Of a DNA stretch of 64,000 bases, positions 26,218-53,173 are shown piece after piece. A model generated the notes under the pieces. That model had not been told where the DNA came from, searched no databases, and worked only from the letters and a program-made list of their open reading frames with translations. The stretch covers positions 7,426,001 through 7,490,000 of the forward strand of contig NZ_CP050440.1 in the NCBI RefSeq assembly GCF_011769525.1, written 5' to 3'. Source of the DNA: Tolypothrix sp. PCC 7910. GTDB lineage: Bacteria; Cyanobacteriota; Cyanobacteriia; Cyanobacteriales; Nostocaceae. A program made the translations under genes and the position numbers. The stretch's first letter is position 1, and each line of letters begins with the position of its first letter.

Positions 26218-28029
26218 TTAAGAGAAAGTTTGATTAAGCCAATATTGAAAAATTGCCAAGCTCCACTGACGATACCATAATTTCAAGTCGATTTTTTTGT
26301 TTAATTCATGAGATGGGAAATAATCATGCCAATCTTTCTCTAGCCATTGCTGAAATGGAAAAAAGAATCCTCTTTTTGGGCGATTCAGGAGCCAATTTGG
26401 TAATTCAGGTATTGATTTAATTAATAGCTGTTTGCCTGCTGCTAATCGTAGGTTATAGGGAATAGATGATATAGACTCTAGCAATACCCGATCAACTAAA
26501 GGTACTCGTAATTCTAATCCCCAAGCCATACTCATAATATCACTATCGCGTAATAGTTGATTACGCATATAACAGCTCAATTCTAGGAAACTCACTTCAT
26601 CCTCTAAAGAAGGAAAGTTGGTAGGTTGGCTACTCTGATGAGCCATTTTACCTTCTATAATTTTGGAAGAAAAATCTTTGAGATAATATTGAGTCAAATC
26701 CCAAGCTTCTTGATGAGAAAAGATACCCCTAAAACTGTGGTAGGCTCTTTGAGTTGTAGGTTGGTCTTGAAAAAAATCTCCTATACGCTTTAACTGGGGT
26801 GATTTTCCCCAAGATGCTAATCCCCAGCCTAGGCTAGTAGTGATCGGTTGAATCTTTTGGAGTTGCTTTCCCCAGCGAACCATTTGCGGAACTGTTTGGA
26901 AGGTTTTATAACCTCCGAATAGTTCATCTCCTCCTAATCCTGATAGGACTACTTTAGTGCCGTCTTGGTGAGCAATTTGAGATACACAAAAAGTATTAAA
27001 ACCATCAATACTTGGTTGATCGATTCTTTGTAAAAATTGTGGAAATAATTCTTTGCCTATAGTAGATGTAATTTTATATTCTGTATGATCAGTTTCAAAA
27101 TTTTGGGCTATATCGCGGGCAATATCTCCTTCATTCCATTCCTTTTCTGCAAAAGCGATAGAGTAAGTGCGTAATTTACTTTTTTGTGTTTGACGTGCTA
27201 GGGCAACAATAGAAGATGAGTCAATTCCACCACTTAGAAAGATACCAACAGGTACATCGCTAATAAAGTGATGTTCGATAGAGTTAATCAAAGCATGACG
27301 AACTTTTTCTGTGGCTTCTGGTAAAGATATGCTATTATCACTAGTAAAATTAATTTGCCAGTACTGGTGTTGACTAACTCTGCCAGCATACCAATGTAAC
27401 CAATGACCAGCTTCTAAACAATAAATGCCATCAATTAAAGTGTAAGGTTCTGGTACTGTACCGCTAGTAAAATAGCCATATAAACCTTGAGAATTCAAGC
27501 AAAGATTGGGTAATCCAGAAGCAAGTATTGCCCTAAGTTCTGAAGCAAATACTAAAGTACCACCAGATTGCCAGTAATAAAGTGGTTTAATTCCTAAAGG
27601 ATCGCGAGCGATAAAACAAGTCTTGTCTTGGTTATCCCAAATAGCAAAAGCAAACATTCCCTGTAACTGGTTAACGCAATCTTTTCCCAGTTTCTGATAA
27701 AGCCTGAGAATGACTTCAGTATCAGTGCGGGACATAAAATGCTCACCTTGAGCTTCTAGCTGCGATCGCAAAGATTGAAAGTTGTAAATTTCTCCATTAA
27801 AGACGATCCAATAGCGTCCATCGGGTGTAGACATAGGTTGATGTCCCGCTGGACTGAGATCTAAGATAGACAAACGAGTGTGGGCAAGAGCAGCTTGACG
27901 TTCGTTAGCTATGTAAATTCCCTGATCATCTGGGCCACGATGGTATAAAGACTTTTGCATCTGCTGAATTGGATGCTCCAGATGCTTTTGATGAGAATCT
28001 ATGGTGAGAATGCCTGCTATACCACACAT
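26218..28029 (-). CDS. asparagine synthase-type amidotransferase (AsnB family)
   Basis: A 603-residue class II glutamine amidotransferase. Cys2 in MCGIAGIL is the glutaminase nucleophile. RGPDDQG, LAHTRLSILDLSPAGHQPM and FNGEIYNF line the glutamine site. The synthetase half has the ATP loop LSGGIDSSS and SGLGGDELFGGY. The length suits AsnB. In O-antigen loci such enzymes (for example WbpS) convert uronic acids to uronamides with glutamine and ATP, which would suit the diamino-uronate pathway genes at 49-53 kb. It overlaps the upstream GT4 gene by 13 bases, so the two are probably translationally coupled. Confidence 0.9.
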   Translation of the reverse strand: MCGIAGILTIDSHQKHLEHPIQQMQKSLYHRGPDDQGIYIANERQAALAHTRLSILDLSPAGHQPMSTPDGRYWIVFNGEIYNFQSLRSQLEAQGEHFMSRTDTEVILRLYQKLGKDCVNQLQGMFAFAIWDNQDKTCFIARDPLGIKPLYYWQSGGTLVFASELRAILASGLPNLCLNSQGLYGYFTSGTVPEPYTLIDGIYCLEAGHWLHWYAGRVSQHQYWQINFTSDNSISLPEATEKVRHALINSIEHHFISDVPVGIFLSGGIDSSSIVALARQTQKSKLRTYSIAFAEKEWNEGDIARDIAQNFETDHTEYKITSTIGKELFPQFLQRIDQPSIDGFNTFCVSQIAHQDGTKVVLSGLGGDELFGGYKTFQTVPQMVRWGKQLQKIQPITTSLGWGLASWGKSPQLKRIGDFFQDQPTTQRAYHSFRGIFSHQEAWDLTQYYLKDFSSKIIEGKMAHQSSQPTNFPSLEDEVSFLELSCYMRNQLLRDSDIMSMAWGLELRVPLVDRVLLESISSIPYNLRLAAGKQLLIKSIPELPNWLLNRPKRGFFFPFQQWLEKDWHDYFPSHELNKKIDLKLWYRQWSLAIFQYWLNQTFS

Positions 28030-29192
28030 TTAGATAAACCTAAGTATTTTTCTAAATAAATGCCAAGAGTTTGTTTAAAGCTTTCAAAGCCAAATCGCTC
28101 AATTACTTTTTCTCGTAATACATCTGGTTGATAGAGAAGAGAATTGCTATGAGTACCTTGTAATATTTGAATTAGAGCTTGTGCGATCGCTTCTATATCA
28201 TCAGGATCAACAAGTACGCCTAATTCTCCCTGACACAGAGCATCCTGCGCCCCATCTTGATTACCTGCAAGGGTGGGTTTACCGCAAGCTAAAGCCTCTA
28301 GGTAAACAATACCAAATCCTTCACCTTTACTGGGCATTGCAAATATATCGCACATATGGTAATGAGCACTAAGTTCTTCATCGGGAACAAACCCAGTTAA
28401 GGTAACGCAATCTTGGAGTTGATATTGAGAAATTAGCTGTTTAATCCGCGGTTCATCGTCTCCCTTACCGACTAAAATGTAATGCACATGAGGAATAGCC
28501 TGACGAATTTGAGGTAAAGCCGCCAAAATTTTATCGTAACCCTTGTACTGCTCTGATTGAGACAGCCGAGCCACAGTCAGGATAATTGGTTGCTGTGGAT
28601 TTAAACCATATCGTTGAAGCAAGTAATCAGGCTTAGGTGCAATCTGAAAATTATCAGCATCAAATGTATTCGGGAGAACCACAACTTTTTGTGGATCGAG
28701 GTCTTGTTCTTGAAGCAGGCGATCGCGTGTATAGTGACTAACAGCTAGGATGATATCTGCGTGCTTGAGGGCTAACTTCCGAGTTGAGTTTTGCAGATTC
28801 CAAACTTCAATTCCATGAGCAACAACCCCATAAGGAATACCTAAAAACCACTTTAACAAGTACGCAGGAAAGCTAAAGTTAAGATGAGAGGTGATAATCA
28901 GACTAGGGTGTTGCCAGATTCCATATCCTAAAATTTGAGCAGCAAACACAAATGTCCTTAAAGGTAATGACCACGCTCCTGCAAAATGTAATTGGGTGCG
29001 AGCTTTAAAGGAATAGTTTGGAGAGCAGTGAGTATCTTGTTTCAGAAAAATATGATAATCCTGTTGAGGATATATTTGTTGTAATGCTTCTAATAAAAAT
29101 GCTGAATAAACTTGAATTCCACCCTTAAATTGAAAAATTTCAGGAAACCATAAAGAGATTTTTTGTAATTTATCATATTTGGTTTTTCCCAT
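28017..29192 (-). CDS. family 4 glycosyltransferase
   Basis: A GT-B enzyme of about 391 residues. The frame can begin at a TTG (29231), but ATG 29192 (MGKTKYDKLQ) is more likely and leaves a short extension before ISLWFPEIFQFKGGIQVYSA. The donor domain has PIILTVARLSQSEQYKGYDK and the EX7E motif in GEGFGIVYLEALACGKPTLA. It ends 13 bases inside the asnB-like gene and follows the polymerase-like gene closely. It probably transfers a nucleotide sugar to the lipid-linked repeat unit on the cytoplasmic side. Confidence 0.86.
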   Translation of the reverse strand: MGKTKYDKLQKISLWFPEIFQFKGGIQVYSAFLLEALQQIYPQQDYHIFLKQDTHCSPNYSFKARTQLHFAGAWSLPLRTFVFAAQILGYGIWQHPSLIITSHLNFSFPAYLLKWFLGIPYGVVAHGIEVWNLQNSTRKLALKHADIILAVSHYTRDRLLQEQDLDPQKVVVLPNTFDADNFQIAPKPDYLLQRYGLNPQQPIILTVARLSQSEQYKGYDKILAALPQIRQAIPHVHYILVGKGDDEPRIKQLISQYQLQDCVTLTGFVPDEELSAHYHMCDIFAMPSKGEGFGIVYLEALACGKPTLAGNQDGAQDALCQGELGVLVDPDDIEAIAQALIQILQGTHSNSLLYQPDVLREKVIERFGFESFKQTLGIYLEKYLGLSKCVV

Positions 29193-29240
29193 ATAAAACT
29201 CTGAGGATTTAGTTTTTATGATATCTAACAATTTAGGCTG

Positions 29241-30713
29241 CTAAACTACATTTTTTTGAGCCTGTTGTTGGCGCAAGATAAATCTAAATATGAGATATAT
29301 AACTAATGATACAGTAAATACATTGCCAAACATGAGGGAGAAATTCCATTCATGGGAAGTAAAAGAGTATAAAATACCAATCCCTATGACGATTTCTACG
29401 CTACCCATTTTGGGTGAATTAAGCTTTTGCTCAAATAAAGAAAATAATGCCCCTAAAAGAGCCATTCCTATCTGCACACCTTGAGCACCAAAATTAGCAT
29501 ACATTTCTGCTATCAAGGGTAGATTAAAAGTAGTTGAGTAATCTTTTTTTCCAATATATCTGTAACGTCTGCCAAATTCATTACCTATACCCTCTGACGG
29601 TTTGTCAGGCCACAAAGCACGAGGAATAAACTTGGAGAAGAAACCCAAGTAACTCCCACCACTCCAATAAGGTATTGGTTGAGGAGTATCAGCGATAATA
29701 TTAGAAAATAATATAATATGTGCTGTTCTAGACATTGCAGAAGCGCTGGCAGACTCTTTGTCTTCTTTACTATTAAGATTAGGATTAGAGTAATATTTTA
29801 CAGCGATATCTATAAACAATTGAGCCTTTTCTATAGGGCTTGCATTAGCATACGGGCCTCCGAACCAAGTCAATTGTCTATACTCACCTTTCACTATATT
29901 AAAAGTCATAAAGAATACTAATAAAATACTAATCAGTACAATTGGTATACGTTTACGTTCGTAAAAAATAACTATACCCATAAATGTACCGATAAATCCA
30001 ACATTAGCTAATGAACCTCCAACAAACCGAATGAGTAAGTCAAATAGAAAACATGAACCTACAATTAATTTATTTTTTAAAGATAAGTTTTTATTGCGTG
30101 ACCAAATAATATAAAATATTCCATAACCTATATTACCCATTACATTTGATAACTGGTCTACCGATGGCAGTTTAATAAAGTAAGAAAAAACAATATGCAA
30201 TACTACTATTGTTTGAATTGGATTAATCAGTTTATTTAATGAATAAGACGGTAGCTTAATAGGAGAAATTTGTTTCCAGATAGTTAATTTTGTGGCGTAA
30301 AAAACTCCAACCATACCTATTAACCCGATCAGAGTCAATTGCAATGACTGAATGCTTACAGATGCCTGAGACCAACGACCTATACCTAACTTCTCGCTGG
30401 AAAAAATAGGTACGGCAAAGCTATTAACGTAAAAAACTCCCATTAATGGGAGGAATGGCATAGGAGGACGGTTACGATCTAATAGATATTGTATACTTGG
30501 AAAAAATCCTATCCAAAGGATACCTAGTGCTAGAAATCCTTTATCTGTTGACAGCGATACTGGGCGGTGATTCCATAAATAAAAACTACCGACGACTAAA
30601 CCAAATATCAGCAAGAAGCAGATTCTCTTTAAATAAGTCTCTTGCTCCCTTTTTGCCCTAATACTAGCAATTAAATATTGATTTTGTGTATTTTGATTAT
30701 AATAATTATGCAT
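29241..30713 (-). CDS. wzy: Wzy-like oligosaccharide repeat-unit polymerase
   Basis: The 490-residue integral membrane protein has about 12 hydrophobic segments and one large periplasmic loop with SGGSYLGFFSKFIPRALWPD and FNLPLIAEMYANFGAQG. That is the PR-LWPDKP plus E-Y-N-FG pattern of O-antigen/exopolysaccharide polymerases. Wzy enzymes join lipid-linked repeat units on the outer face. Sequences of this family are very divergent, so the call rests on topology, loop motifs and position among glycosyltransferases. No Wzx flippase is seen in this window. Confidence 0.75.
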   Translation of the reverse strand: MHNYYNQNTQNQYLIASIRAKREQETYLKRICFLLIFGLVVGSFYLWNHRPVSLSTDKGFLALGILWIGFFPSIQYLLDRNRPPMPFLPLMGVFYVNSFAVPIFSSEKLGIGRWSQASVSIQSLQLTLIGLIGMVGVFYATKLTIWKQISPIKLPSYSLNKLINPIQTIVVLHIVFSYFIKLPSVDQLSNVMGNIGYGIFYIIWSRNKNLSLKNKLIVGSCFLFDLLIRFVGGSLANVGFIGTFMGIVIFYERKRIPIVLISILLVFFMTFNIVKGEYRQLTWFGGPYANASPIEKAQLFIDIAVKYYSNPNLNSKEDKESASASAMSRTAHIILFSNIIADTPQPIPYWSGGSYLGFFSKFIPRALWPDKPSEGIGNEFGRRYRYIGKKDYSTTFNLPLIAEMYANFGAQGVQIGMALLGALFSLFEQKLNSPKMGSVEIVIGIGILYSFTSHEWNFSLMFGNVFTVSLVIYLIFRFILRQQQAQKNVV

Positions 30714-40812: not shown

Positions 40813-42474
40813 TTAAGTAGAAATCTTCCACATCTGCAATGCAGAACGTAAAGGTAAATAGTAGCGCAAGCGGAACCACTCAGGTAGTAAAAGGCTCACT
40901 TGCTTATTTAAGCCACGTGTTTTGACTAACCTGAACCAATGATAAAATCTCTGTGTTACAGGCATAATTTGTAGTCTGGATTGAATCAAATCATCGAGTT
41001 GATAGTTCCAACTATGATCGCGAATCCAAAAAACATCCGGCTCACCAAGAAAAATTTTATCCTGTGGCGGTGAGGTCAGTTGTATCCGAGGCAAAGTAAG
41101 TGCTTGGATATATATCTGTTCTAAGGAACGTAGCCAGTTATCTCCCATATGTAAATCTACAATACTCTCTTGAGTCTTTTCTCCTAAAGCCAGCCTGAAT
41201 TCCTCATTTTCTATTAAGCCTGATAGCACAGTTTTGTATTCTTCTAGATCGTGAACCCGAATTAGATTGCCAGTTAAACCTGGCATATCAGCACCAAAAA
41301 TTTCACATGTATCAGAGGAATAAGGGTAGCGGCTTACTAAAGGTACACCATAGCTCCCTGCTTCTAATAGAGAAGTAATCGAAACAAAGGGATAGGAGTC
41401 AACGTAGATGTCAGCGGCTTGATAATATATGGCAGTATCTTCAGTATGTCCCAAAACAATAATTCTGCCTTGGGTTTGCTGGATCGCAGTTGACCAATCT
41501 TCCCTACCACCAGGGCCAATAACAATCAAAATAGCGCGTTCATATTTTTTTAATAGTGATACATGTGCGTCAGCAAAGCTCATTCCATCAGTCTTTCTGT
41601 ACTTAGGCGCTCTAGCAATGGAGAGTAGTAATATACTATTTTCATCAATACCAAGCTCTCGTTTTGCTTCTGGGCGAGATAGCGATCTGTGAGCAGGTTC
41701 TAAAATAGTCGGTAGGAGCATGTTACGCTCTGGTTGAATATATCGGCGCTTTTGTGAAAAACGCATACCAGACTCACGCAAATTCGCCACAATGTCACTG
41801 ACGCTAGAACCTAACCAAAAGCAGTGATCGCCGTGATTGACATAAATAACTGGTGGACATTGCTCTTTATTGGCAAATGCAATGATCGGAATAACATCAT
41901 GTTCCCAGATATGTAGTACTACGACATCAAATTGAGATGCAATTTCCCGTAATCTTTTGGCACGGGAGACATAACCACCTATTGTTTCGTTGAGTAAATA
42001 AGTGTTGCCTTGACTATTGGTGACTAACTCTTGCAGAATCGGCGGTACTTCATCAGGAGCTTGCTTTGTCAAGGCCAATGAATGCGATCGCTCTGTATCC
42101 TGTTGCATCCAACGTCGCAGAAATCTTGGAATACCACCAAAAGGCGAAGCAATGTTGGTAGATACATGAAGTATCTTTTGTGGTGTTTTGCCCAGAGAAG
42201 ATGTCTGACTGCGATTCAAGCTGGTGTATTTAATTTGGCGACCTATGGTCAACAAAATATCTTCTAGTTCTAGGCTGGCGAAAATCCCACAATGTTTAAA
42301 CTGTGCATGATAAGCTGCAATTTCTGCATACACAGCTGCTGCATTATATTGCCGGCTTTGAGCAAAATCTCTGGCTTGATGTAGCAGACTGCGAAATACA
42401 GCAAAATTTTCTTGTATAAGTTGAATACCTTCTTCTCGCCTGACACCAAGTCTATCTTGAGTAACTATTTCCAT
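40813..42474 (-). CDS. GT-B glycosyltransferase with helical N-domain (paralogue C)
   Basis: A 553-residue protein. An N-terminal helical, TPR-like domain of about 100 residues (FRSLLHQARDFAQSRQYNAA) precedes a GT-B region beginning KILHVSTNIASPFGGIPRFL. The donor half includes ILLLSIARAPKYRKTDG and DIYVDSYPFVSITSLLEAGS. A C-terminal tail of about 90 residues carries FLGEPDVFWIRD. It is clearly homologous over its full length to 43499-45217. The duplicated pair with an unusual N-domain suggests two related transfer steps. Substrate unknown. Confidence 0.8.
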   Translation of the reverse strand: MEIVTQDRLGVRREEGIQLIQENFAVFRSLLHQARDFAQSRQYNAAAVYAEIAAYHAQFKHCGIFASLELEDILLTIGRQIKYTSLNRSQTSSLGKTPQKILHVSTNIASPFGGIPRFLRRWMQQDTERSHSLALTKQAPDEVPPILQELVTNSQGNTYLLNETIGGYVSRAKRLREIASQFDVVVLHIWEHDVIPIIAFANKEQCPPVIYVNHGDHCFWLGSSVSDIVANLRESGMRFSQKRRYIQPERNMLLPTILEPAHRSLSRPEAKRELGIDENSILLLSIARAPKYRKTDGMSFADAHVSLLKKYERAILIVIGPGGREDWSTAIQQTQGRIIVLGHTEDTAIYYQAADIYVDSYPFVSITSLLEAGSYGVPLVSRYPYSSDTCEIFGADMPGLTGNLIRVHDLEEYKTVLSGLIENEEFRLALGEKTQESIVDLHMGDNWLRSLEQIYIQALTLPRIQLTSPPQDKIFLGEPDVFWIRDHSWNYQLDDLIQSRLQIMPVTQRFYHWFRLVKTRGLNKQVSLLLPEWFRLRYYLPLRSALQMWKIST

Positions 42475-43498: not shown

Positions 43499-45217
43499 TC
43501 ACCTATCAAGCTCTATAAGCTTTTTTACACGAATAATCACATATTTTCTCAATTGCCAATACAGCCATTGCGGTAGCAAAATGTCTATCGCACCATTGCG
43601 ACCCAAACCATGCTTTTTAATGATTTGCATCCAAAAGGCAAATCTTTGAATGAAAGGCATCATATGCCATTTCTTGAGATTTTCTGGCTCGATTTGATCG
43701 TGACCACAGGCATTCCAAAATATTCTTGTTAAAAGAACATCTGGCTCACCGAGAAACATTTCATCTCGTAAATTTGACTTCACAGTTACACGAGGTAAAT
43801 TCATCGCCTTAGCATATATTTCTTCCAAGGAGCTTTGCCAATTGCTACCCGTATGTTTTTCCGCAATACATTTGCTAGTAGCATCACCTTGGCTGCAGCG
43901 GAATTCTGCATCTTCAATCAAGCGAGACAGAATTGCTGTGTATTGCTCCAAATTTCGCGCCCGTAGCAGATGCTCGTCCAAGCCTGGTGCATCAGAACCA
44001 AGTATGGCGCAGGCATCAGAGTAAGGATAACGAGTTACTAACGGTACACCATAACTGCCAGCTTCTAACAAAGAAGTGATGGAGATAATAGGAAAAGAGT
44101 CAACATAGATGTCCGCAGCTTGGTAAAACACTGCAGTATCTTCGCGCTCTGCAAAAATTTTAATCCGCTCCTGTGTGCGTTCAACTGCTGCTGACCAATC
44201 CTCACTATCACCAGGGCCAATCACTACTAAAACAGCATTGTCATGCTTTTCTAATAGGGGAACATGGGCATCAGCAAAGTTCGGCTCCTCAATCGTGCGG
44301 TATTTAGGCGCTCTAGCAATGGAGAGCAGTAATACTGTGTTTTCATCAAACCCAAGTTTTTGCTTTGCTTCTGTCCGCGAAAGCGTTCTGGTAGTGGGAG
44401 GCAAAATAATTGGCAGCAAGCCTATGCGTTCAGCCTCAAAGCCTCTGCGTTCTTGTGCCAAGCGCATTCCAGAGGAGCGGAGATTAATCAAAATATCACT
44501 AATGCTAGCTCCTAACCAAAAGCCGTGGTCGGCATGATCTAAGTAGAGAATTGGTGGAGATTGCTCTTTATTGGCAAAGGCAATTATGGGAATTGCGTCA
44601 TCTGGCCAGATATGCAGCACTACTACATCTGCATCTGCGGCGATTTGGCGTAGCCGTTTTGCCCAAACTAAAATGCCGCCGATGGTAGTTTCATTGAGCG
44701 AATATATTTTGCCACCGCTATTGTACACAGCATCTCTCAAAATGGTAGGTACAGAGCTTGATGCTTGCTGTGTCAAAACTAAAGAGTGGCAACTTTTTGT
44801 ATCTTGCTGCATCCAGCGCCAAATCATTCTGCCTAGTCCACCAATGCCTTGTACCGCACTAGCAACATGTAGTACTTTTCTGGTTGCTCCAGGTGAAGGC
44901 TGGCTTTTTTGGGGATAAATCGGTATAGTTTGTTGTGCGATCGCACGTAGAACTTGCTCAAGTTCGGGACTAGCAAACAGACCACTATGCCGCCAGAAGC
45001 CATACAAAGCAGCCATTTGCACATACACGGCAGCTTCAGTATATTTACCTTGCTGTGCATAGTCTTTGGCTTGGGCAACTAGACTGGCAAACGCTTTGTA
45101 GTTTGCTTGAATTAATTGCCTGCCTGCTAATGGCCCTATATTGAGTGCATTATTAGCTATTTTTTCCATAAAATTCTCTTGGGAATATTGTTCAGCTTTG
45201 CTAACTAATAGACTCAA
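43499..45217 (-). CDS. GT-B glycosyltransferase with helical N-domain (paralogue D)
   Basis: A 572-residue protein homologous to 40813-42474. It has a helical N-domain (LVAQAKDYAQQGKYTEAAVY) and a GT-B region from KVLHVASAVQGIGGLGRMIW through VLLLSIARAPKYRTIEEP and DIYVDSFPIISITSLLEAGS. The same C-terminal FLGEPDVLLTR tail follows. Its start overlaps the stop of the aminotransferase by four bases (ATGA), so translation is coupled. The preference of ATG 45217 over an internal Met (MEKIANNALN) is supported by this overlap. Confidence 0.8.
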   Translation of the reverse strand: MSLLVSKAEQYSQENFMEKIANNALNIGPLAGRQLIQANYKAFASLVAQAKDYAQQGKYTEAAVYVQMAALYGFWRHSGLFASPELEQVLRAIAQQTIPIYPQKSQPSPGATRKVLHVASAVQGIGGLGRMIWRWMQQDTKSCHSLVLTQQASSSVPTILRDAVYNSGGKIYSLNETTIGGILVWAKRLRQIAADADVVVLHIWPDDAIPIIAFANKEQSPPILYLDHADHGFWLGASISDILINLRSSGMRLAQERRGFEAERIGLLPIILPPTTRTLSRTEAKQKLGFDENTVLLLSIARAPKYRTIEEPNFADAHVPLLEKHDNAVLVVIGPGDSEDWSAAVERTQERIKIFAEREDTAVFYQAADIYVDSFPIISITSLLEAGSYGVPLVTRYPYSDACAILGSDAPGLDEHLLRARNLEQYTAILSRLIEDAEFRCSQGDATSKCIAEKHTGSNWQSSLEEIYAKAMNLPRVTVKSNLRDEMFLGEPDVLLTRIFWNACGHDQIEPENLKKWHMMPFIQRFAFWMQIIKKHGLGRNGAIDILLPQWLYWQLRKYVIIRVKKLIELDR

Positions 45218-46416
45218 ATCTGACAGGCAGTTTGCAAAACCTGAACTACCCGATTTTGTTCTTGCTCAGTCATTTGATGAAATAGAGGCAAAATAATTGC
45301 TCTTTCTTGAGCTTGTTCGCTCTCAATTAAGCGCTGACAACTTCCTGCTTCACAGTTACAGCTTTGATTGGTAATTCCACAAGACCAAGCTTCAATTTGA
45401 TAAGCACTTTCACGATGGGTGCACATAATACCACGTCTGGTAGATACGCCGGCATCTAACATTGCTTGCATCACTTGCACTTGATCGCATTTTTCTGGAA
45501 GCCGGACACAAAAGCTTTGCCAGTTACTCTTTGCCCAAGCTGGTTCTGTTGGTAATTTTAATCCTGGGACATCTGCTAGCAATTCTTGATACCGTTGTGC
45601 CAAATAACGCCGACGTTCCACAATCTCTGGTAAGCGTTTGAGTTGTTCCCGTCCTACTGCTGCTTGGATATCGGTTATGCGGTAGTTATAGCCCAACATT
45701 GGGTAGGACTCAAATATTACCTGTTTGGCTCCATGACGTACGGTGTCAGGTACGCTCATTCCATGCTGTCGCCAGAGGCGGAATTGTTTATCCCACTCTG
45801 GGTGGTTGGTAGTAAGCATTCCACCGTCGCCAGTAGAGATAATTTTGCGGGGGTGGAAGGAAAAGCAAGCTATGTCTCCATGTGGCTTACCGATTTTTTC
45901 CCACTGTCCATCCCAAAGAATTTCACTACCAATAGCACAAGCTGCGTCCTCAATTACTGGTAAATTGTAACGGCGGGCAATGTCTAAAATTGCTTTCAAG
46001 TCACAAGGCATTCCAATTTGATGGACTACCAAAATTGCACGGGTGGAATTGCTAATTACATCTTCAATTAACATCGGGTTGATGTTGTATGTTTGCGGTT
46101 CAATATCCACAAACACTGGAATCGCACCACAGTAGCGAATGCTGTTAGCGGTGGCAATGTAAGAATGGCTGACGGTAATTACTTCATCGCCAGGTTGTAC
46201 ACCAACAGCTAACAATGCTAGATGCAGCGCTGTCGTGCAATTGGACACAGCACAAGCATATTTTGCTCCTACATAGGCAGCAAACTCTTGTTCAAAAGCA
46301 GCAACTTCTGGCCCCTGTGTTACCCATCCAGCTAAAATCGGGCGCTTTGCTGCTTCTGCTTCAGCTTCACCCATCCAAGGTTTAGCAATAGGGATAGTTT
46401 GAATTTTTTCAGACAT
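45214..46416 (-). CDS. DegT/DnrJ/EryC1 sugar aminotransferase (1)
   Basis: A 400-residue PLP-dependent aminotransferase of the DegT/DnrJ/EryC1/StrS family. It has [20 protein letters not shown] (phosphate-binding), VIEDAACAIGSE (Asp to the PLP nitrogen) and SFHPRKIISTGDGG, which contains the Schiff-base Lys. It transfers an amino group to a keto nucleotide sugar. A Cys-rich insertion (CGITNQSCNCEAGSCQ) near the C-terminus is a variant and might bind metal. It overlaps the epimerase gene by eight bases. The keto substrate is unknown. Confidence 0.9.
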   Translation of the reverse strand: MSEKIQTIPIAKPWMGEAEAEAAKRPILAGWVTQGPEVAAFEQEFAAYVGAKYACAVSNCTTALHLALLAVGVQPGDEVITVSHSYIATANSIRYCGAIPVFVDIEPQTYNINPMLIEDVISNSTRAILVVHQIGMPCDLKAILDIARRYNLPVIEDAACAIGSEILWDGQWEKIGKPHGDIACFSFHPRKIISTGDGGMLTTNHPEWDKQFRLWRQHGMSVPDTVRHGAKQVIFESYPMLGYNYRITDIQAAVGREQLKRLPEIVERRRYLAQRYQELLADVPGLKLPTEPAWAKSNWQSFCVRLPEKCDQVQVMQAMLDAGVSTRRGIMCTHRESAYQIEAWSCGITNQSCNCEAGSCQRLIESEQAQERAIILPLFHQMTEQEQNRVVQVLQTACQI

Positions 46417-47383
46417 TGCTTGCTTCCTTTGCCAGCTTTTGTTCGCGCCACCAACTTACCAACCGTTGCAATCCCTCTTCTAAAGATACTTGGGCTTCAA
46501 AACCCAATAATTCTTTAGCTTTGCTCACATCTGCTAACCGACGCTGTACAGGGTTGACTTTGCGTTCTGGGCCATATTCTGGTTGTAAATCTGACCCCAT
46601 GACTTTCGCCAAACTATAAGCGAGGTCATTCAAACTGCTTTCTACACCACTAGCAATGTTAAACACCTCATCGCTAACATCAGCTTTAGCTGCTAAAATG
46701 TTGGCTCTAGCAATGTCTTCGATATATACAAAGTCCATTGTTTGTTTGCCATCACCAAAAATTAATGGTGGTTGACCTGCGGCGATGCGTTCCATCCAGC
46801 GAATCAAAACTTCAGTATAGACACCGTATATATCCATACGCGGGCCGTAGACATTGAAGTAGCGCAACCCTACATAATCTAGACCATACATATCATGGAA
46901 ACTGCGTAATAAGCCTTCATTAAAGACCTTGGCTGCACCATAAAGGGTGCGGTTATTGTATGGGTGATGGGATTCTGTAGTAGGGAAATCCTCTGCCATT
47001 CCGTAAATAGAAGCAGAAGAAGCAGCTACTACCTTTTTCACGCCTGCTTTGACAGCGGCTTCCAACACATTGAAAGTGCCATCTGCTAAAACTTCTAAAG
47101 CTAAACGTGGTTCTTCTGCACATTGAGTAATGCGAATTGCTGCTTGATGAAAGACAACATCAACACCTTGCATAACTTCGCCTAGCAGTTTTTGGTCTCT
47201 AATATCGCCTTCTACAACTACTAAGGGCCCGTGTTCTTTTGCCCATGCCAAATTTTTAATTTGTCCGCGTGTGAAATTATCAAGAATAATAATTTCCGAT
47301 ACGCCTTCCTTAACTAATAAATCAGCAATATGGGAGCCAACTAAACCTGCTCCACCTGTAATTAATACACGTTTATTTTGCAT
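46409..47383 (-). CDS. NAD-dependent sugar epimerase/dehydratase
   Basis: A 324-residue extended SDR enzyme. The NAD-binding loop is ITGGAGLVGSHIADLL, the catalytic Ser region is VAASSASIYG, and the active-site YxxxK is YGAAK. Later segments GLRYFNVYGPRMDIYG and FVYIEDIARANILA are typical of UDP-glucose 4-epimerase/UDP-GlcNAc epimerase-like members. It could act as a 4-epimerase or a 4,6-dehydratase. The gene overlaps its neighbours on both sides (8 and 11 bases), so it is part of the coupled nucleotide-sugar block. Confidence 0.9.
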   Translation of the reverse strand: MQNKRVLITGGAGLVGSHIADLLVKEGVSEIIILDNFTRGQIKNLAWAKEHGPLVVVEGDIRDQKLLGEVMQGVDVVFHQAAIRITQCAEEPRLALEVLADGTFNVLEAAVKAGVKKVVAASSASIYGMAEDFPTTESHHPYNNRTLYGAAKVFNEGLLRSFHDMYGLDYVGLRYFNVYGPRMDIYGVYTEVLIRWMERIAAGQPPLIFGDGKQTMDFVYIEDIARANILAAKADVSDEVFNIASGVESSLNDLAYSLAKVMGSDLQPEYGPERKVNPVQRRLADVSKAKELLGFEAQVSLEEGLQRLVSWWREQKLAKEASNV

Positions 47384-48341
47384 TTTCTTGTAATTGAGTA
47401 ATTTGTGCTTCTAAAATTTGAATACGATTTAGCAAATCAGAAGTTTGTAAGCCTAAAGTAGTTTTCACAGACTTAATGATATTAGATGCTGCTGTTTTTT
47501 CTTCTCCAGTCAATTGAACTGTAAAAATTCTCAGTACTCCATCACTAGTCAACACATCAACAAAACCATCTGTTTTAGATCTATTGATAATTCTACCGGG
47601 TATGCGTCCTACATAAATAGGTGGATTATCAACAGGCTGGGCTTGCCAAATGGTGAGTTTCGTGCCTTGAAAATATGTGTAAGCACCAGGAAAAGGAGCA
47701 ACTAAAGCCCGAATTAAACAATCTATACTTCTAGTAGAAGCCGACCAATTAATCTCACCATCTTCAGGTAGGCGAGTACAACCATAAGTAGCTTCAGCGT
47801 TATTTTGCTGAACTCCTGGGTAACCATTAAAAGCTTTAACAACAGTCTCGCCTAAATTTTGCCGCTGAATTTCATTTAATCTGTCATACAAATCAGCTAC
47901 CGTGTCATGGCGGTGAATGGGAATTAGCTGCTGAAATACAATATTTCCCTCATCTAAATCAGATGAAATTTTATGAATGCTAATTGCTGCACAAGGTTCA
48001 TCATTAATAATTGCCCAATTAACGTTAGCCCGTCCTCGATATTGGGGTAAAGGAGAATAATGAACATTGATGAATGTAGACAGTTCAATCAGTGCAGGTG
48101 GCAGAATTTGATTATAGGAAGAAACTACCACGCAATCTGGCTGAAGTTTGAGAATGAGTGCTTTAATTGCTTTTTGTGAGGTATCTGTAAATATGGGAAT
48201 ATTTGCCGTTTGAGCCAAATTAGCTACAGGATCATCTGTGTCGGGATAACGCACTATTCCTTGAACATGACACTGAGAAATTAATGATTCTAAGGCAGTT
48301 AAAGTAGTGGTACCTATACCAATCAGCAGTACATTTACCAT
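47373..48341 (-). CDS. sugar N-formyltransferase-like protein
   Basis: A 322-residue protein with a formyltransferase domain. Its INVHYSPLPQYRGRANVNWA segment corresponds to the HxSLLPxYRG region of methionyl-tRNA and sugar formyltransferases, and SSDLDEGNIVFQ contains the catalytic Asp. It has an Fmt-like C-terminal domain (TRLPEDGEINWSASTRSIDC, RIPGRIINRSKTDG). Placed between an epimerase and aminotransferases, it probably transfers formyl from N10-formyl-tetrahydrofolate to an amino sugar nucleotide. It is not the housekeeping Fmt, since the tRNA-specific neighbours (def) are absent. A short coiled coil ends the protein. Confidence 0.8.
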   Translation of the reverse strand: MVNVLLIGIGTTTLTALESLISQCHVQGIVRYPDTDDPVANLAQTANIPIFTDTSQKAIKALILKLQPDCVVVSSYNQILPPALIELSTFINVHYSPLPQYRGRANVNWAIINDEPCAAISIHKISSDLDEGNIVFQQLIPIHRHDTVADLYDRLNEIQRQNLGETVVKAFNGYPGVQQNNAEATYGCTRLPEDGEINWSASTRSIDCLIRALVAPFPGAYTYFQGTKLTIWQAQPVDNPPIYVGRIPGRIINRSKTDGFVDVLTSDGVLRIFTVQLTGEEKTAASNIIKSVKTTLGLQTSDLLNRIQILEAQITQLQENAK

Positions 48342-48352: not shown

Positions 48353-49360
48353 TCACAGCAGTTGCACAAATTCCAAACCAGATGTTTGCGGTTGGAAAGA
48401 TTGCCGCCAAATTACTTCCGCAGCTTTGAGTCCGCCTGTTTGCAAGCGTACAATTGGTTCTGGCCCCACGGCTGATGGGAGAATGCCCATGTGCCCTGGT
48501 TTTGGCTCAACTTCTGAGCATACAGGGATATTCTGGGCAGCAAAAGCCGATCGCTCGATGTCTCCCCAGTATTGAGCAACTAATGTACCTGGCCAATACT
48601 TAGCGATCACGGCCGCATCTTTAGCGCCTAATATTGGTTCTAGGCGTGGTTGTAAAGCTACGAGAATGGCATCGTAGTTTTTATTAATAGATGCAGTGGC
48701 AAGGCTATCAACAGTATCTACTGTGGCACCAGCTTGGACTAAACCACGCTCAATAAATCGCTGAAAAGGGTTATCACATAACAATAAAATATTGCTGGTG
48801 TAAACGGAAATTCCGGCATCCAGCAATTGTTTGACTGCCATAATTCCCAAAAAGGAAAAGACATCTACTGCTGGATGACGTTCGTTCACGCCTACAACCT
48901 GGATACCTTTGAGGCGACAGGTAATTAGATCCAAGTCTTCTGGTCTAAATTCCCAAGCTTCGTACATTAAGCCAATGACAGCATTTGGTTTCATCCAACC
49001 AATCATCTCTGCATTGATGGGGCGAACATGGCCGCTGTTGGTAATGATATCGGCTTGAGCAACAATATCTGGAGTTTTTTCGGCGATAAATTCAATGCGA
49101 TCGCTGACTCCGGCAATATCAGCTAGTTGCTTTGTCAAAGCTTGCACTTGTTCTACGCTACCATAGCGGGTAGTCTTGGCGATCGCCAAGACTTTCTCGG
49201 CTCTAGCGATCGCAGCTACAATCGGTGTGACTGCATAGGCACCTGTTGCGGCTTCTGTCAGCACGATCGCGTTTTGCAATCGCAAATCACAACGTTCAAC
49301 AGCTTGGTGTACCAAGGAAACAAGGCGATGGGGATTTAAACCAGGACGGGGATCGCTCAT
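48353..49360 (-). CDS. unrecognised two-Rossmann-fold protein in sugar block
   Basis: A 335-residue protein of no family I can name. It has helices and strands consistent with two Rossmann-like halves: NAIVLTEAATGAYAVTPIVA with KVLAIAKTTRYGSVEQ, and then VSFLG-type loops such as VNERHPAVDVFSFLG and DAILVALQPRLEPILG. No canonical GxGxxG is present. A conserved-looking SEVEPKPGHMGILPSAVGPE lies near the end. The ATG overlaps the stop of the upstream aminotransferase by one base (TAATG), and the formyltransferase follows after 11 bases, so it should act in the same pathway. It may bind a nucleotide or a sugar nucleotide. Confidence 0.55.
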   Translation of the reverse strand: MSDPRPGLNPHRLVSLVHQAVERCDLRLQNAIVLTEAATGAYAVTPIVAAIARAEKVLAIAKTTRYGSVEQVQALTKQLADIAGVSDRIEFIAEKTPDIVAQADIITNSGHVRPINAEMIGWMKPNAVIGLMYEAWEFRPEDLDLITCRLKGIQVVGVNERHPAVDVFSFLGIMAVKQLLDAGISVYTSNILLLCDNPFQRFIERGLVQAGATVDTVDSLATASINKNYDAILVALQPRLEPILGAKDAAVIAKYWPGTLVAQYWGDIERSAFAAQNIPVCSEVEPKPGHMGILPSAVGPEPIVRLQTGGLKAAEVIWRQSFQPQTSGLEFVQLL

Positions 49361-50469
49361 TAAACAGCCACTCCCTGCAGAATGTTTTGGAGGCTATTAG
49401 CGACTTTGCTCACCTGTGTGGCTGTGAGTTCAGCATACATCGGTAGGGAAAGTACTTCTCTAGCCGCTAATTCTGAGTGGGGAAAATCACCAGGTTTGTA
49501 ACCTAAATCAGAGTAAGCTGTTTGCAAGTGAACTGGGATTGGATAGTGAATACCTGTTTGAATTTCTTGTGCATTCAGTTGTTGCTGTAGCCATTCCCTT
49601 TGGGAAGTCCGCACTGCATAAACATGATACACGTGGCGATTATGAGATAAGGTTACAGGTGTAGTTAAACCAGAATTGGCTAAAAGTTGATTGTACTGGG
49701 CTGCGTGTGTTCTTCTAGCTTCTGTCCACTCTTCGATGTACCGTAACTTGACCCGTAAAATCGCGCCCTGGATGCCATCCATGCGATAGTTATAACCTTT
49801 AAGAATATGGTGATATCTGCGTTCTTGACCCCAGTCGCGTAACATCTGCATGGTGTGTGTATATTCCGGGTTACTGGTGACGATCATCCCGCCTTCACCA
49901 TAAGCTCCTAAGTTCTTACCTGGGTAAAAGCTAAAGCACCCAATGTCACCAATACTACCTACCCTTTTTCCTTTATACTCTGCACCATGAGCTTGGGCAG
50001 CATCTTCAATTACGGTCAAACCATGACGGCGAGCGATTTCCATAATTGGTTCCATATCTGCTGGTTGACCGTACAAATGTACAGGCAGAATGGCTTTGGT
50101 GCGTTCGGTAATCGCTTGTTCGATTTTGTTGACATCTATTGTGTAAGTAATCGGATCGATATCAACAAAAACAGGTTTGGCTCCGGTATAACAAATGGCC
50201 GCTGCAGTTGCTACAAAGGTGAAAGGTACGGTAATGACTTCGTCACCTGCACCGATACCTGCTGCTAATAATGCTAGGTGGAGGGCGCTAGTACCTGTAT
50301 TGACAGCGATACCAAAATCTGCATTGCAATAGTCAGCAAATTCTGCTTCTAAAGCTTTAACTTCATTACCCAAAACAAATTGAGTACTTTCTAAAACTTT
50401 CAGAACAGCAGTATCAATTTCGTCTTTGATGCTGAGATATTGAGTTTTGAGATCTACAAATGGAATCAT
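49360..50469 (-). CDS. WbpE-like DegT family aminotransferase (2)
   Basis: A 369-residue PLP aminotransferase with [19 protein letters not shown] at the start, [20 protein letters not shown] for the phosphate and [15 protein letters not shown] holding the Schiff-base Lys. It resembles WbpE/WlbC-type enzymes, which aminate 3-keto UDP-uronic acids. The gene overlaps the Gfo/Idh gene by four bases, the same pairing as wbpB-wbpE, where the dehydrogenase product is passed to the aminotransferase. It is one of two DegT paralogues here and the one most likely to be in the uronate branch. Confidence 0.87.
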
Positions 50470-51503
50470 GCTGCCACCTCTGCTAAATTTAGTTCAACTA
50501 ATCGGCCCTGTTGCTTGAGAGACTGGCTTGCAGCTTCAAGAATTCTCACTACCCGCAGTCCTGCTTCCCCATCAGTAATGGGGCGATCGCCTTTTTGGAT
50601 ACAATTAATGAAATGTAATCCTTCGGTTCGCAATGCTTCTGTCATGTCTAATTGAGGTGACCACATATCACCTGTGCGGTAACCAATCAGCATCTGGTAA
50701 ACGCTTTCAGTATTGCCGTTGAGGGTAATTCCTTTGTCGTATACCTTCAGCTTTTCACTGGGTTCCAAATCATCAAACACAATCATCTTTTGAGAACCAC
50801 CAATCAGAGTCCGGCGAACTTTTACGGGTGCTAGCCAGTTAACATGGATATGTGCCATCAAGTTGCTTTCAAAGAATAGAGTTAAATAAGCTATATTTTC
50901 TGGTTCTCCGGGAACATGGCTCATCCCTGTTGCCGACACTGCATAAGGTTGGGATTGCAATACATAGCTCATGATTGATAGGTCATGTACTGCTAAATCC
51001 CAAATCACGTTCACATCATGCTGAAATAGCCCTAAGTTAACGCGTACAGAGTCATAGTAATAAATATCGCCTAAAGCATTTGAGACCACCAAGTCTCTCA
51101 TTTTGCGTACTGCACCAGTGTAGACAAAGGTGTGATCTACCATGAGCACCAAATTGCGTTTTTCAGCCTCATCGATCAAACGCATAGCTTGCTCAGAGGA
51201 AACAGTCATTGGTTTTTCTACCAGTACATGCTTTCCAGCCTTCAATGCAGACAAAGCTAAATCAAAGTGGGTGGACACTGGTGTGGCAATTACTACCGCA
51301 TCAATTGTAGGATCTGTGTAGATATCGCGACAATCTGTTGTCACATTAATTTTGGGATATCTCGCCTGTACCTTTGCGAGTAACTCTGGTTTAAAATCAC
51401 TAACCGTTTTGATTTCTGCTCCTGGGATTTCCGAAAAATTCCTGACTAAATTCGGGCCCCAATAACCATAGCCAATGACACCAATTTTAATGTTGCTTCC
51501 CAT
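50466..51503 (-). CDS. WbpB-like Gfo/Idh/MocA oxidoreductase
   Basis: A 345-residue Gfo/Idh/MocA protein. The NAD site is [20 protein letters not shown], the EKP motif is in [12 protein letters not shown], and the central His/Asp region [13 protein letters not shown] is catalytic. This subgroup (WbpB/WlbA) oxidises UDP-GlcNAc-uronic acid at C3. The gene is first in a coupled run with the aminotransferase (four-base overlap). It starts shortly after a 243-base spacer that contains a terminator hairpin for the upstream gene, so it probably begins a new operon. Confidence 0.87.
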
Positions 51504-51745: not shown

Positions 51746-52399
51746 TCAGTTTTTGCTCATTTGTTTTTTAGAGGTAATTTTCTCCATTTTTCTCTTCGCA
51801 GTAATTCCACCCAGAAATAAAAAGCCAGCTATTGCAGTAGCTAACATATTACCTTCGGGAACTGCATCCGATGATTGATTGATGTTAACTATTGCATAGT
51901 TAGCTTGTTCATTACCACGTGTGAAAATATCTTGACTTTCTCCCCGATAATTATCCCACCTTGTAATATAACTATCGACCTTACTGACAAGAAATAGCGT
52001 GCCATTGGAAGCAACTACTCCGCGATATGGAACTAAGGCTGATGGATAATTATTAACTCGCGTTGGTATATTTGGTTGAGAATTTAGTAATAATGCGATA
52101 CTGTCAACCAGATTCTTTGCCCCAGGAGCATTATTCCAAAAAGTGGGTGCTTTAAAATCGGGATTACTAGGAGAACCAAACAAGTTGATAAATGAATCAT
52201 ACTTGAAGGTAACATCATAACTAATATCATCAACTACTAAGTCCTCAATTTTACTAACATTACCAGGGCTACCATATTTTAGTTGTACAGCAGCAGTAGG
52301 GTTAGCAAAAATAGTAGCAATACTCAAAACCGAAAACAGAGAAATAACTGTTGATTTAATTTGGGTTTCGAGCAGGTAGATTTGACTAAACATTTGCAC
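51746..52399 (-). CDS. PEP-CTERM-like secreted protein
   Basis: A 217-residue protein with an N-terminal signal segment (TVISLFSVLSIATIFANPTA). The mature domain is unrecognised. The C-terminus is of the PEP-CTERM sorting type: VPEGNMLATAIAGFLFLGGI followed by TAKRKMEK, that is a VPE motif, a hydrophobic helix and a basic tail. Here the second Pro of VPEP is Gly. PEP-CTERM proteins are processed by exosortase, often in organisms with large exopolysaccharide loci. No exosortase gene is in this window. The substitution may reduce recognition. Function of the domain unknown. Confidence 0.7.
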   Translation of the reverse strand: MQMFSQIYLLETQIKSTVISLFSVLSIATIFANPTAAVQLKYGSPGNVSKIEDLVVDDISYDVTFKYDSFINLFGSPSNPDFKAPTFWNNAPGAKNLVDSIALLLNSQPNIPTRVNNYPSALVPYRGVVASNGTLFLVSKVDSYITRWDNYRGESQDIFTRGNEQANYAIVNINQSSDAVPEGNMLATAIAGFLFLGGITAKRKMEKITSKKQMSKN

Positions 52400-52660
52400 C
52401 TCATACCAAAGTCTGGATCTTCTTTAGCATCTAAAAACTATGTAACCAATAGCAATACCTTCAGCAAAATTAAAGGATTAGGAATCAATATAAAAGCTTA
52501 ATTCTTATGAGCAAAGAAAATTTTGATGTGCGAATTAGATTTTAAAGCTATGTCCTAAACACCAGATTTCGCTTAATTTCTAAAAGTTATTGAAGGTGAT
52601 AAAAGCTATTAATTATTGGTGTTTCCTGACTTTGATATGCTAATTGACTATGTTGCTGCG

Positions 52661-53173
52661 TTATCTCACACTTGTAGTGGCTATTTCTAGGTTGCTTTTG
52701 TTATCGCGTACATCACCAATTACACGGGCAGGTACTCCCACTACAATTGCATAATCAGGAACATCATGGGTAACTACGGCTCCAGCCCCAACAATAGCTT
52801 TTTCACCAATTGTTACGCCCGGCAAGATAGTCGCATTACTACCAATAGAGGCACCTAGTTTGACAACAGTTTCAACTACATCCCAATCAGATTCTAGTTT
52901 TAAACTACCATCATCATTAGCTGCACGAGGATAAATGTCATTCGTGAACATTACCCCATGTCCAATAAATACTTCATCTTCAATAATCACACCTTCACAG
53001 AGAAAACTGTGTGATGAAATTTTACATCTGCTACCTACAACAACATTTTTTTGGATTTCAACAAAGGTGCCAATTTTAGTATCATCGCCAATAGTACAAC
53101 CATAGAGGTTGACTAATTGGGGATGGAAAATTTTGACGTTACGACCTAACTTGATATCATCTTTCATTGGCAT
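52661..53173 (-). CDS. WbpD-like hexapeptide N-acetyltransferase
   Basis: A 170-residue left-handed beta-helix protein: [64 protein letters not shown] and a closing [11 protein letters not shown]. This resembles WbpD/WlbB enzymes, which acetylate the 3-amino group of the UDP-diamino uronic acid made by the WbpB-WbpE pair. The gene lies upstream of that pair, separated by the PEP-CTERM-like gene. The alternative is acetylation of a different amino sugar. The catalytic His is probably in SHSFLCEG or HGVMF. Confidence 0.82.

What the first reader, a model, noticed from the sequence alone, without database searches (positions are those of the whole stretch)
26218..53173. Predicted new surface glycan built on a diamino uronic acid, with amide and formyl decoration
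A WbpB-like dehydrogenase and WbpE-like aminotransferase overlap by four bases. A WbpD-like acetyltransferase, a sugar formyltransferase-like gene, an epimerase, a second aminotransferase and an AsnB-type amidotransferase lie in the same run of glycosyltransferases. In Pseudomonas the Wbp enzymes make 2,3-diacetamido uronic acids and WbpS, an AsnB homologue, makes uronamides. Having all these together suggests an unusual charged or neutralised amino-uronamide sugar, possibly N-formylated. The UDP-GlcNAc 6-dehydrogenase is not in view. The full pathway is inference; the families are read from motifs.
Basis: partly seen in the sequence, partly recalled or inferred. Interest (0 to 1): 0.75.

Follow-up and report, generated by a model that had tools for sequence, protein, structure and literature searches.

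The report
Modular triamino-sugar cassette, probably N-formylated
This cyanobacterium carries a gene cassette, shared by very different bacteria, that probably builds an unusual surface sugar with two added amino groups and an exchangeable cap (here formyl), using one enzyme family without a name; it is probably not the uronic acid sugar first suggested.

Summary
The genes described are there. The uronic acid and uronamide reading is not supported. The complete 8.76 Mb genome (a Nostocaceae cyanobacterium by its nearest relatives) has one nucleotide-sugar 6-dehydrogenase, of UDP-glucose type, 2 Mb away. The 'WbpB-like' gene falls far from WbpB. AsnB is separable. What is real is a cassette at 45214-53173: acyltransferase, Gfo/Idh dehydrogenase, aminotransferase 1, a protein with no family (48353-49360, 'UNK'), formyltransferase, SDR, aminotransferase 2. 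I found 71 UNK relatives. Of 53 with 5 kb on both sides, 45 keep dehydrogenase, SDR and aminotransferase 2, and 50 have an N-acyl 'cap' gene: formyl-, LpxD-like, FemAB-like or FkbH/GNAT. In cassettes without UNK a different acyltransferase fills the slot, never both. Best reading: UDP-GlcNAc is aminated at C3, then C4, and capped, here by formyl, giving a neutral triamino sugar. Regiochemistry and the role of UNK are inferred. Side finding: secreted-looking DUF4082 proteins track the cassette (7 of 10 genomes with it, 5 of 138 without).

The parts
52661..53173 (-). acyl: left-handed beta-helix N-acyltransferase; proposed to acetylate the 3-amine
   Evidence: PDB nearest WxcM-like 4mzu 6.1e-29 and 3mqg 8.5e-28 (that 3mqg is WlbB is recalled); NeuD family 85 bits, below cut-off; in 44 of 53 UNK loci with 5 kb flanks
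51746..52399 (-). small secreted-looking protein with a PEP-CTERM-like tail, inserted between acyl and dehydrogenase
   Evidence: no Pfam match; same place (-3) in 9 of 71 relatives; tail read by eye
50466..51503 (-). Gfo: Gfo/Idh/MocA dehydrogenase; proposed UDP-GlcNAc C3 oxidase
   Evidence: best NCBIfam UDP-GlcNAc 3-dehydrogenase (archaeal) 182 bits, cut-off 450; tree
49360..50469 (-). AT1: DegT aminotransferase; proposed C3 aminotransferase
   Evidence: PDB 7b0d 9.1e-133, QdtB 1.9e-110, 2oga (DesV, recalled) 3e-104, WbpE 2.5e-95
48353..49360 (-). UNK: family without a name; two-domain Rossmann-like fold; never seen together with acyl2
   Evidence: no NCBIfam, Pfam or PDB sequence match; AF2 model pLDDT 94.2; Foldseek best dipicolinate synthase A, TM 0.56; 71 relatives
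47373..48341 (-). FT: 10-formyl-THF-type formyltransferase (Fmt/ArnA-like); proposed to cap the second amine
   Evidence: N92, H94, D130 in 45 of 45
46409..47383 (-). SDR: extended short-chain dehydrogenase with GalE-type SSASIYG motif; proposed C4 oxidation for AT2
   Evidence: S-[ST]-A-S-x-Y-G in 55 of 62 SDR hits
45214..46416 (-). AT2: second DegT aminotransferase; proposed C4 aminotransferase
   Evidence: PDB 7b0d 8.1e-61, perosamine synthetase 8.5e-61, ArnB 3.9e-59, 8vr3 4.7e-58, QdtB only 2.9e-48
43499..45217 (-). glycosyltransferase-like protein with an extra N-terminal region; kin lie next to AT2 in many relatives
   Evidence: Pfam Glyco_trans_1_4, weak
40813..42474 (-). paralogue of 43499-45217
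53346..56975 (-). secreted-looking protein: N,N-dimethylformamidase-beta-like domain (DMFA2_C), Ig-like domains, two DUF4082 domains
   Evidence: Pfam; signal region by eye
57300..61901 (-). secreted-looking protein: WD40 propeller, middle not assigned by me, Ig-like domains, two DUF4082 domains
   Evidence: Pfam, 25 of 48 families shown
62169..63437 (-). ABC transporter ATP-binding protein, Wzt-like, with C-terminal extension
   Evidence: read from sequence; a cluster that looks like its kin by eye holds 14 relatives, 13 at -4 to -7 and one at +6 from UNK; an annotated ABC exporter flanks the cassette in CP151668.1
26218..28029 (-). AsnB-type amidotransferase; goes with the variable glycosyltransferase block rather than with the cassette
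   Evidence: TIGR01536 457 bits, over its cut-off; in 2 of the 4 nearest relatives
29241..30713 (-). Wzy-like polymerase of the variable block
   Evidence: NCBIfam XrtY-associated Wzy-like, 36 bits, far below cut-off

Best explanation
The run 45214-53173 is one exchangeable cassette that makes a nucleotide-linked (most likely UDP-) 2,3-diacetamido-4-formamido-2,3,4-trideoxy-hexose from UDP-GlcNAc, without passing through a uronic acid. Steps: Gfo oxidises C3; AT1 aminates C3; acyl acetylates it; SDR oxidises C4 and hands the 4-keto sugar to AT2, which aminates it; FT formylates the new amine. UNK (48353-49360) is a new enzyme family with a dehydrogenase-like two-domain fold. It works on the amino sugar before or with the cap enzyme and is needed whenever the cap is not the alternative acyltransferase 'acyl2'. 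The sugar then enters a surface glycan whose glycosyltransferase/Wzy/AsnB block differs between strains. Shown: gene content, conservation, mutual exclusion of UNK and acyl2, cap exchange, SDR exchange with AT2 kept, absence of a second nucleotide-sugar 6-dehydrogenase. Inferred: nucleotide, positions of the amines, order of steps, stereochemistry, role of UNK.
For: Whole genome has one PF03721 gene, of UDP-glucose type. From 22 cyanobacterial cassette genomes I compared 24 full-length genes: 23 are 75-99% identical to it, one is of WbpA/WecC type. Cassette kept across 71 UNK loci; of 53 with 5 kb flanks: Gfo 48 (plus WbpB type 2), AT1 46, SDR 46, AT2 51, acyl 44, a cap gene 50. Same seven genes, in another order, on a Planctomycetota plasmid. 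Slot exchange in an SDR-anchored sample of 15 genomes: 7 UNK plus cap, 7 acyl2, 1 with broken acyl2 pieces, none with both. SDR exchange: L020 and L021 have the same gene order and near-equal identities to the window (AT2 87.5% and 88%) but SSSEVYG against SSASIYG SDRs; L026, L055, L057 and L058 also carry the SE type. This fits an SDR that supplies a 4-keto substrate. AT1 scores best with 3-aminotransferases, AT2 with 4-aminotransferases, 7b0d (role unknown to me) leading both lists (positions of the named enzymes recalled except WbpE). FT triad 45 of 45.
Against: The window SDR lacks the acidic residue of dehydratases and decarboxylases and looks like a 4-epimerase, so release of a 4-keto sugar is assumed. 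L060 and L078 carry Gfo, SDR, AT2 and UNK without AT1 or acyl nearby, though AT1-like genes (51-52%) exist elsewhere in those genomes. L164 has one aminotransferase (44% to AT2, opposite strand) with two acyltransferases, and L165 shows AT2 but no AT1 in the stretch fetched. The 3-dehydrogenase NCBIfam model also matches Gfo2 of L147, which sits beside a WbpA/WecC-type gene (157 bits), so it does not settle the substrate; the tree does not support the window type as one clade apart from Gfo2 (17/34). Outside cyanobacteria second 6-dehydrogenase genes are frequent, so a uronate route is open there. UNK has no demonstrated cofactor.
Confidence: 0.45

Rival explanations
1. One reading: UDP-GlcNAc goes to UDP-GlcNAcA, then a 2,3-diacetamido uronic acid, amidated by AsnB and formylated.
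For: WbpE- and WlbB-like genes; AsnB in the same gene run and in the same cluster on a planctomycete plasmid; distant relatives L071, L073 and L074 do combine a WbpB-type dehydrogenase, AsnB, UNK and (L071, L074) FT.
Against: No UDP-GlcNAc-type 6-dehydrogenase in the genome; dehydrogenase far from WbpB; AsnB separable.
Confidence: 0.1
2. Two different sugars: Gfo, AT1 and acyl make UDP-GlcNAc3NAc, while SDR, AT2, UNK and FT make a separate 4-acylamido sugar, both used in one glycan.
For: Either half would be a complete pathway by itself; L060, L067 and L078 have SDR, AT2 and UNK without AT1 and acyl nearby.
Against: The halves stay together in most loci across many phyla and are interleaved in one overlapping run; L060 and L078 keep Gfo.
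Confidence: 0.22
3. SDR is a plain 4-epimerase (galacto configuration); AT2 aminates another carbon whose ketone UNK makes.
For: GalE-type SDR motif; dehydrogenase-like fold of UNK.
Against: Nine cassettes without UNK (L140, L141, L148, L158, L161-L165) keep SDR, and eight of them keep AT2 at 63-82% identity, so UNK cannot be the only source of the AT2 substrate; SDR swap with AT2 kept.
Confidence: 0.13
4. GnnA/GnnB-type UDP-GlcNAc3N for an amide-linked lipid A.
For: Same kind of dehydrogenase plus 3-aminotransferase pair (GnnA/GnnB recalled; papers seen in the listing only).
Against: Acetyl- and formyltransferases, SDR, AT2 and surface-glycan genes in the same run.
Confidence: 0.03

Closest known systems
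WbpA/B/D/E/I pathway to UDP-ManNAc3NAcA (PMC10622841, abstract and start of the introduction seen)
   Same: C3 oxidation, C3 transamination, N-acetylation with enzymes of the same superfamilies
   Different: no UDP-GlcNAc-type 6-dehydrogenase in the genome, dehydrogenase of another clade, plus a second aminotransferase, SDR, formyltransferase and UNK
2,3,4-triacetamido-2,3,4-trideoxy-L-arabinose of Psychrobacter cryohalolentis K5T (PMC8040287, three passages seen)
   Same: a known bacterial sugar with nitrogen on C2, C3 and C4
   Different: a pentose, all acetylated; its pathway was called unknown in 2021 (PMC8040287). The decarboxylase route is my recall and inference; our SDR lacks the decarboxylase motif
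ArnA/ArnB/ArnC (UDP-Ara4N, Ara4FN)
   Same: 4-aminotransferase plus 10-formyl-THF formyltransferase of the same families; ArnC/PgfS-like GT2 in 29 of 71 relatives
   Different: no oxidative decarboxylase, an additional C3 amino module; in the window the nearest candidate for ArnC is 19360-20631 (53 bits, cut-off 529), 25 kb from the cassette
Dipicolinate synthase A, FolD and D-2-hydroxyacid dehydrogenase folds (for UNK)
   Same: two Rossmann-like domains, Foldseek E 8.6e-9, TM 0.56
   Different: about 12% identity, no GxGxxG, Glu in the loop after the first strand; no sequence family

Membership tests
Wbp/Wlb diacetamido uronic acid pathway | UDP-GlcNAc 6-dehydrogenase (WbpA) in the genome | tested here: not met
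   one PF03721 gene, UDP-glucose type, beside a UXS-like gene; that it might accept UDP-GlcNAc is not excluded
Wbp/Wlb diacetamido uronic acid pathway | WbpB/WlbA-type dehydrogenase | tested here: not met
   29 bits to the L071 WbpB homologue; 3oa2 not among the 60 best of 62 PDB matches; tree
Wbp/Wlb diacetamido uronic acid pathway | WbpE-type C3 aminotransferase | tested here: inconclusive
   WbpE E 2.5e-95, but 7b0d, QdtB and 2oga score higher
Wbp/Wlb diacetamido uronic acid pathway | WbpD/WlbB-type N-acetyltransferase | tested here: inconclusive
   3mqg 8.5e-28, second to 4mzu
Wbp/Wlb diacetamido uronic acid pathway | WbpI-type 2-epimerase | not tested
   none in the cassette; genome not searched
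Uronamide system (AsnB/WbpS) | amidotransferase conserved with the pathway | tested here: not met
   AsnB block in 2 of the 4 nearest relatives within 20 kb, cassette in 4 of 4. AsnB-like genes do lie near UNK in L015, L055, L071, L073, L074, L076 of 71 loci and in the cluster of CP151668.1
Arn pathway | oxidative decarboxylase with acidic residue in the S-x-S-E motif | tested here: not met
   SSASIYG in the window SDR
Arn pathway | 10-formyl-THF formyltransferase with Asn-His-Asp | tested here: met
   N92, H94, D130 in 45 of 45
Perosamine / Qui3N / bacillosamine pathways | 4,6-dehydratase in the cassette | tested here: not met
   window SDR lacks the acidic residue; an SE-type SDR is seen in L020, L026, L055, L057, L058
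NAD(P)-dependent 2-hydroxyacid or FolD-like dehydrogenases (UNK) | glycine-rich dinucleotide motif | tested here: not met
   the loop reads TEAATGAY; E36 invariant in 38 aligned sequences
NAD(P)-dependent 2-hydroxyacid or FolD-like dehydrogenases (UNK) | cofactor and substrate | not testable with these tools
   needs purified protein

The most novel reading that the evidence does not exclude
A widespread sugar-nucleotide system that I found described nowhere: a fixed core (Gfo, SDR, AT2, usually AT1 and acyl) makes 2,3,4-triamino sugars. A cap slot behind a new enzyme family (UNK) is re-equipped with formyl-, LpxD-like, FemAB-like or FkbH/GNAT enzymes, while UNK-free versions use one acetyltransferase-like gene. 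Secreted DUF4082 domain proteins are the partners (binders or processors) of the resulting glycan.
Probability: 0.35. Interest if true: 0.75.

Novelty: new variant of a known kind. Interest (0 to 1): 0.6.

Why it matters
If right, one cassette with members in ten phyla explains a class of surface sugars for which I found no description (searches named in the field on what was tried). It puts a job within reach for a protein family that two plasmid records call hypothetical. It also gives DUF4082, found in a single paper of the library, a first functional lead.

Tried and rejected
UNK as a folate enzyme feeding FT (the FolD-like fold hits suggested it): rejected, because UNK also occurs with LpxD-like, FemAB-like and FkbH caps. 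UNK as a 6-dehydrogenase: no invariant Cys among 38 sequences. DMFA2_C as a deformylase for the formyl cap: weakened, because it also lies beside UNK-free cassettes without FT (L140, L141, L148, L163). DUF4082 model against PDB: weak beta-sandwich matches only (phage baseplates, PHR, CBM35/CBM6), no claim made. Viral fold library for UNK: no useful match. Papers: the listings and the empty results showed none whose title or abstract start describes this cassette; PMC10622841 seen as outline with abstract and start of introduction, PMC8040287 as three passages, the others in listings only; the library lacks most subscription journals. The chance that 8vr2/8vr3/8vr6 are the Psychrobacter triacetamido-arabinose enzymes is a guess of mine; no paper was found.
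Full report
Observation. The run from the dehydrogenase (ending at 51503) down to the first glycosyltransferase-like gene (43499) is tightly packed: dehydrogenase/AT1 overlap 4 bases, AT1/UNK 1, UNK to FT gap 11, FT/SDR overlap 11, SDR/AT2 8, AT2/glycosyltransferase 4. The acyltransferase lies one small secreted-looking gene upstream.

No uronate route in this genome. The window lies in an 8.76 Mb genome (7 contigs, listed as 100% complete). A search for the nucleotide-sugar 6-dehydrogenase family PF03721 found one gene, 2 Mb away, next to a UDP-glucuronate-decarboxylase-like gene (read from sequence); its best NCBIfam model is UDP-glucose 6-dehydrogenase TuaD, 530 bits, below the cut-off of 700. 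That it also takes UDP-GlcNAc is not excluded. In 22 cyanobacterial genomes with the cassette I compared 24 full-length PF03721 genes: 23 are 75-99% identical to this gene, one, in the L029 genome, is of WbpA/WecC type. One genome (L018) has none over the cut-off; a third strong gene in the L023 genome was not compared. Outside cyanobacteria (31 genomes) second genes that score like the WbpA/WecC-type ones are frequent; only L137-L139 of them were compared and are nearer that type. So there the uronate route stays open. I searched the genomes of 53 of the 71 loci this way.

The dehydrogenase. WbpB is no close relative: the homologue in L071 (Pseudomonadales) matches WbpB 3oa2 at 4.6e-113 and matches the window protein with 29 bits. 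In a tree of 28 sequences the three WbpB-type rows split off at 100/100 on the longest inner branch; three Gfo2 rows from L145-L147 form another clade, 100/98; the 22 window-type rows as one clade have only 17/34, so their relation to Gfo2 is open (treekit warns that the long branches of WbpB and Gfo2 may attract each other). The best NCBIfam match of the window protein is UDP-GlcNAc 3-dehydrogenase, 182 bits, cut-off 450, but Gfo2 also gets 157 bits, so the model does not fix the substrate.

UNK. 48353-49360 has no match in NCBIfam or Pfam; of 38 aligned relatives scanned singly, two had the best, chance-level, Pfam match (E 0.0037). PDB sequences gave nothing, the profile three weak hits, best E 0.15. 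AlphaFold gave a confident model (pLDDT 94.2, pTM 0.90) of two Rossmann-like domains; Foldseek puts dipicolinate synthase A first (E 8.6e-9, TM 0.56, 12% identity), with FolD, formate and 2-hydroxyacid dehydrogenases and SAH hydrolase below. The usual GxGxxG is replaced by TEAATGAY, and T35, E36, Y42, M132, E134, W136, E137 and E160 are among the 15 invariant positions of 38 sequences. A redox role is thus suggested by fold only. Two plasmid records carry relatives annotated as hypothetical protein. UNK was found in 4 of 148 genomes of the window's order.

The cassette. A scan of genome contigs (one genome for each of 84,980 species) with four UNK sequences gave 71 loci. The scan looks for two peptide patterns, so it is a lower bound. 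By record titles and tree labels they lie in Cyanobacteriota, Bacteroidota, Pseudomonadota, Actinomycetota, Chloroflexota, Acidobacteriota, Gemmatimonadota (L033, the part before the contig end), Verrucomicrobiota and Omnitrophota; a Planctomycetota plasmid adds a tenth phylum, with the same seven genes in another order. Of the 71, 53 have at least 5 kb on each side of UNK. Within 9 kb, on the same strand, at identity limits set by me for each gene: Gfo 48, WbpB-type 2, AT1 46, SDR 46, AT2 51, acyl 44; Gfo or WbpB with SDR and AT2 45. A cap gene is found in 50 of 53: FT 37, LpxD-like 5, FemAB-like 5 (one together with FT), FkbH with GNAT 3, GNAT alone 1; three have none by these limits (L040, L068, L076), though L040 is in the looser FemAB cluster. 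The WbpB-type gene of L074 fell below my limit. L060 and L078 lack AT1 and acyl near UNK but have AT1-like genes elsewhere.

Cap-slot exchange. Three DUF4082-bearing cyanobacteria without UNK (L140, L141, L148) have the same core with a different, 235-238 aa LbH acyltransferase, acyl2, between AT1 and SDR. To avoid searching by UNK, I anchored on the SDR: 15 of 388 genomes of the class have it at E 1e-130 or better. Seven have UNK with FT and/or a FemAB-like gene, seven have acyl2, one (L162) has broken acyl2 pieces, none has both. Counting L162 as neither, Fisher p = 0.0014; relatedness is not corrected for. In the 71 UNK loci acyl2 above 50% identity is not seen. UNK-type and acyl2-type rows are mixed in the dehydrogenase tree (L140 and L141 with L023, 100/98), so the slot was exchanged while the core stayed. 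acyl2 is an LbH acyltransferase of no precise family (NeuD model 66-68 bits, cut-off 161; PDB best 1.7e-16). L164 and L165 show no AT1 in the stretch fetched.

SDR exchange. 55 of 62 SDR hits carry the GalE-like S-[ST]-A-S-x-Y-G motif; of the other seven, L041 was not resolved. L020, L026, L055, L057 and L058 have an SDR with S-x-S-E instead, nearest LegB/RmlB models (194-243 bits, below cut-offs), and L054 one that also resembles 4-keto-pentose synthases (126 bits). L020 and L021 have the same gene order and near-equal identities to the window, AT2 87.5% and 88%. AT2 is therefore most simply a C4 aminotransferase fed by whichever SDR is present. This is inference; no enzyme was assayed.

Cap and glycan. 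The formyltransferase has N92, H94 and D130 in 45 of 45 aligned sequences (one short piece under 216 aa or more per interrupted locus was left out of that alignment). In 29 of 71 loci, chiefly Bacteroidota, an ArnC/PgfS-like GT2 lies near UNK (131-141 bits for L047), which suggests an undecaprenyl-phosphate-linked sugar there. In the window's nearest relatives the cassette is kept in 4 of 4 (L009-L012), while the glycosyltransferase/Wzy/AsnB block is found within the next 20 kb in 2 of 4. AsnB-like genes do occur near UNK in six of the 71 loci (L015, L055, L071, L073, L074, L076) and in the planctomycete cluster.

DUF4082. The two large secreted-looking genes upstream (53346-56975, 57300-61901) carry DUF4082, one also DMFA2_C. 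DUF4082 occurs in 28 of 32 and 15 of 37 cassette genomes, 43 of 69 together (own genome plus those of 68 of 71 loci; L037, L074, L079 not given). In one order sample of 148 genomes, 7 of 10 with the SDR orthologue and 5 of 138 without have DUF4082 (odds ratio 62, p 3.2e-7; phylogeny not corrected). Counted by UNK instead it is 3 of 4 against 9 of 144 (p 0.0016). Three of the five have the Gfo2 cluster near it, two neither. The DUF4082 model (pLDDT 96.2) is a beta-sandwich with weak matches.

Verdict. Observation confirmed, chemistry re-read: most likely a neutral, formyl-capped triamino hexose made by a modular cassette with one unnamed enzyme family; regiochemistry and the role of UNK are open.

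Noticed in passing
window 53346-61901; kin in many loci: DUF4082 secreted-looking proteins, often with DMFA2_C, track the cassette: 7 of 10 genomes with the SDR orthologue against 5 of 138 without.
   Followed up: partly
   Followed up: partly
L008 8551-9945; L054 7505-8909: A flavin-reductase-like gene (Pfam, L008) sits between AT1 and UNK in a cyanobacterium; L054 (Chitinophagaceae) has similar-looking pieces just before AT1, judged by eye. Role unknown.
   Followed up: no
L156 4346-5890; L157 12457-13347: A gene that reads like a metallo-beta-lactamase-fold enzyme (by eye) lies between AT1 and UNK in two cyanobacteria; perhaps a further tailoring step.
   Followed up: no
window 23490-24461: PhyH-type dioxygenase gene beside the glycosyltransferase block; also in the two relatives that share the block.
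   Followed up: no
window 31993-32937: GT11 (alpha-1,2-fucosyltransferase family) member, weak Pfam match.
   Followed up: no
L170 (CP151668.1), L171 (NZ_CP040759.1): The cassette, or much of it, is carried on plasmids of a planctomycete and of Paracoccus, in line with horizontal spread.
   Followed up: partly
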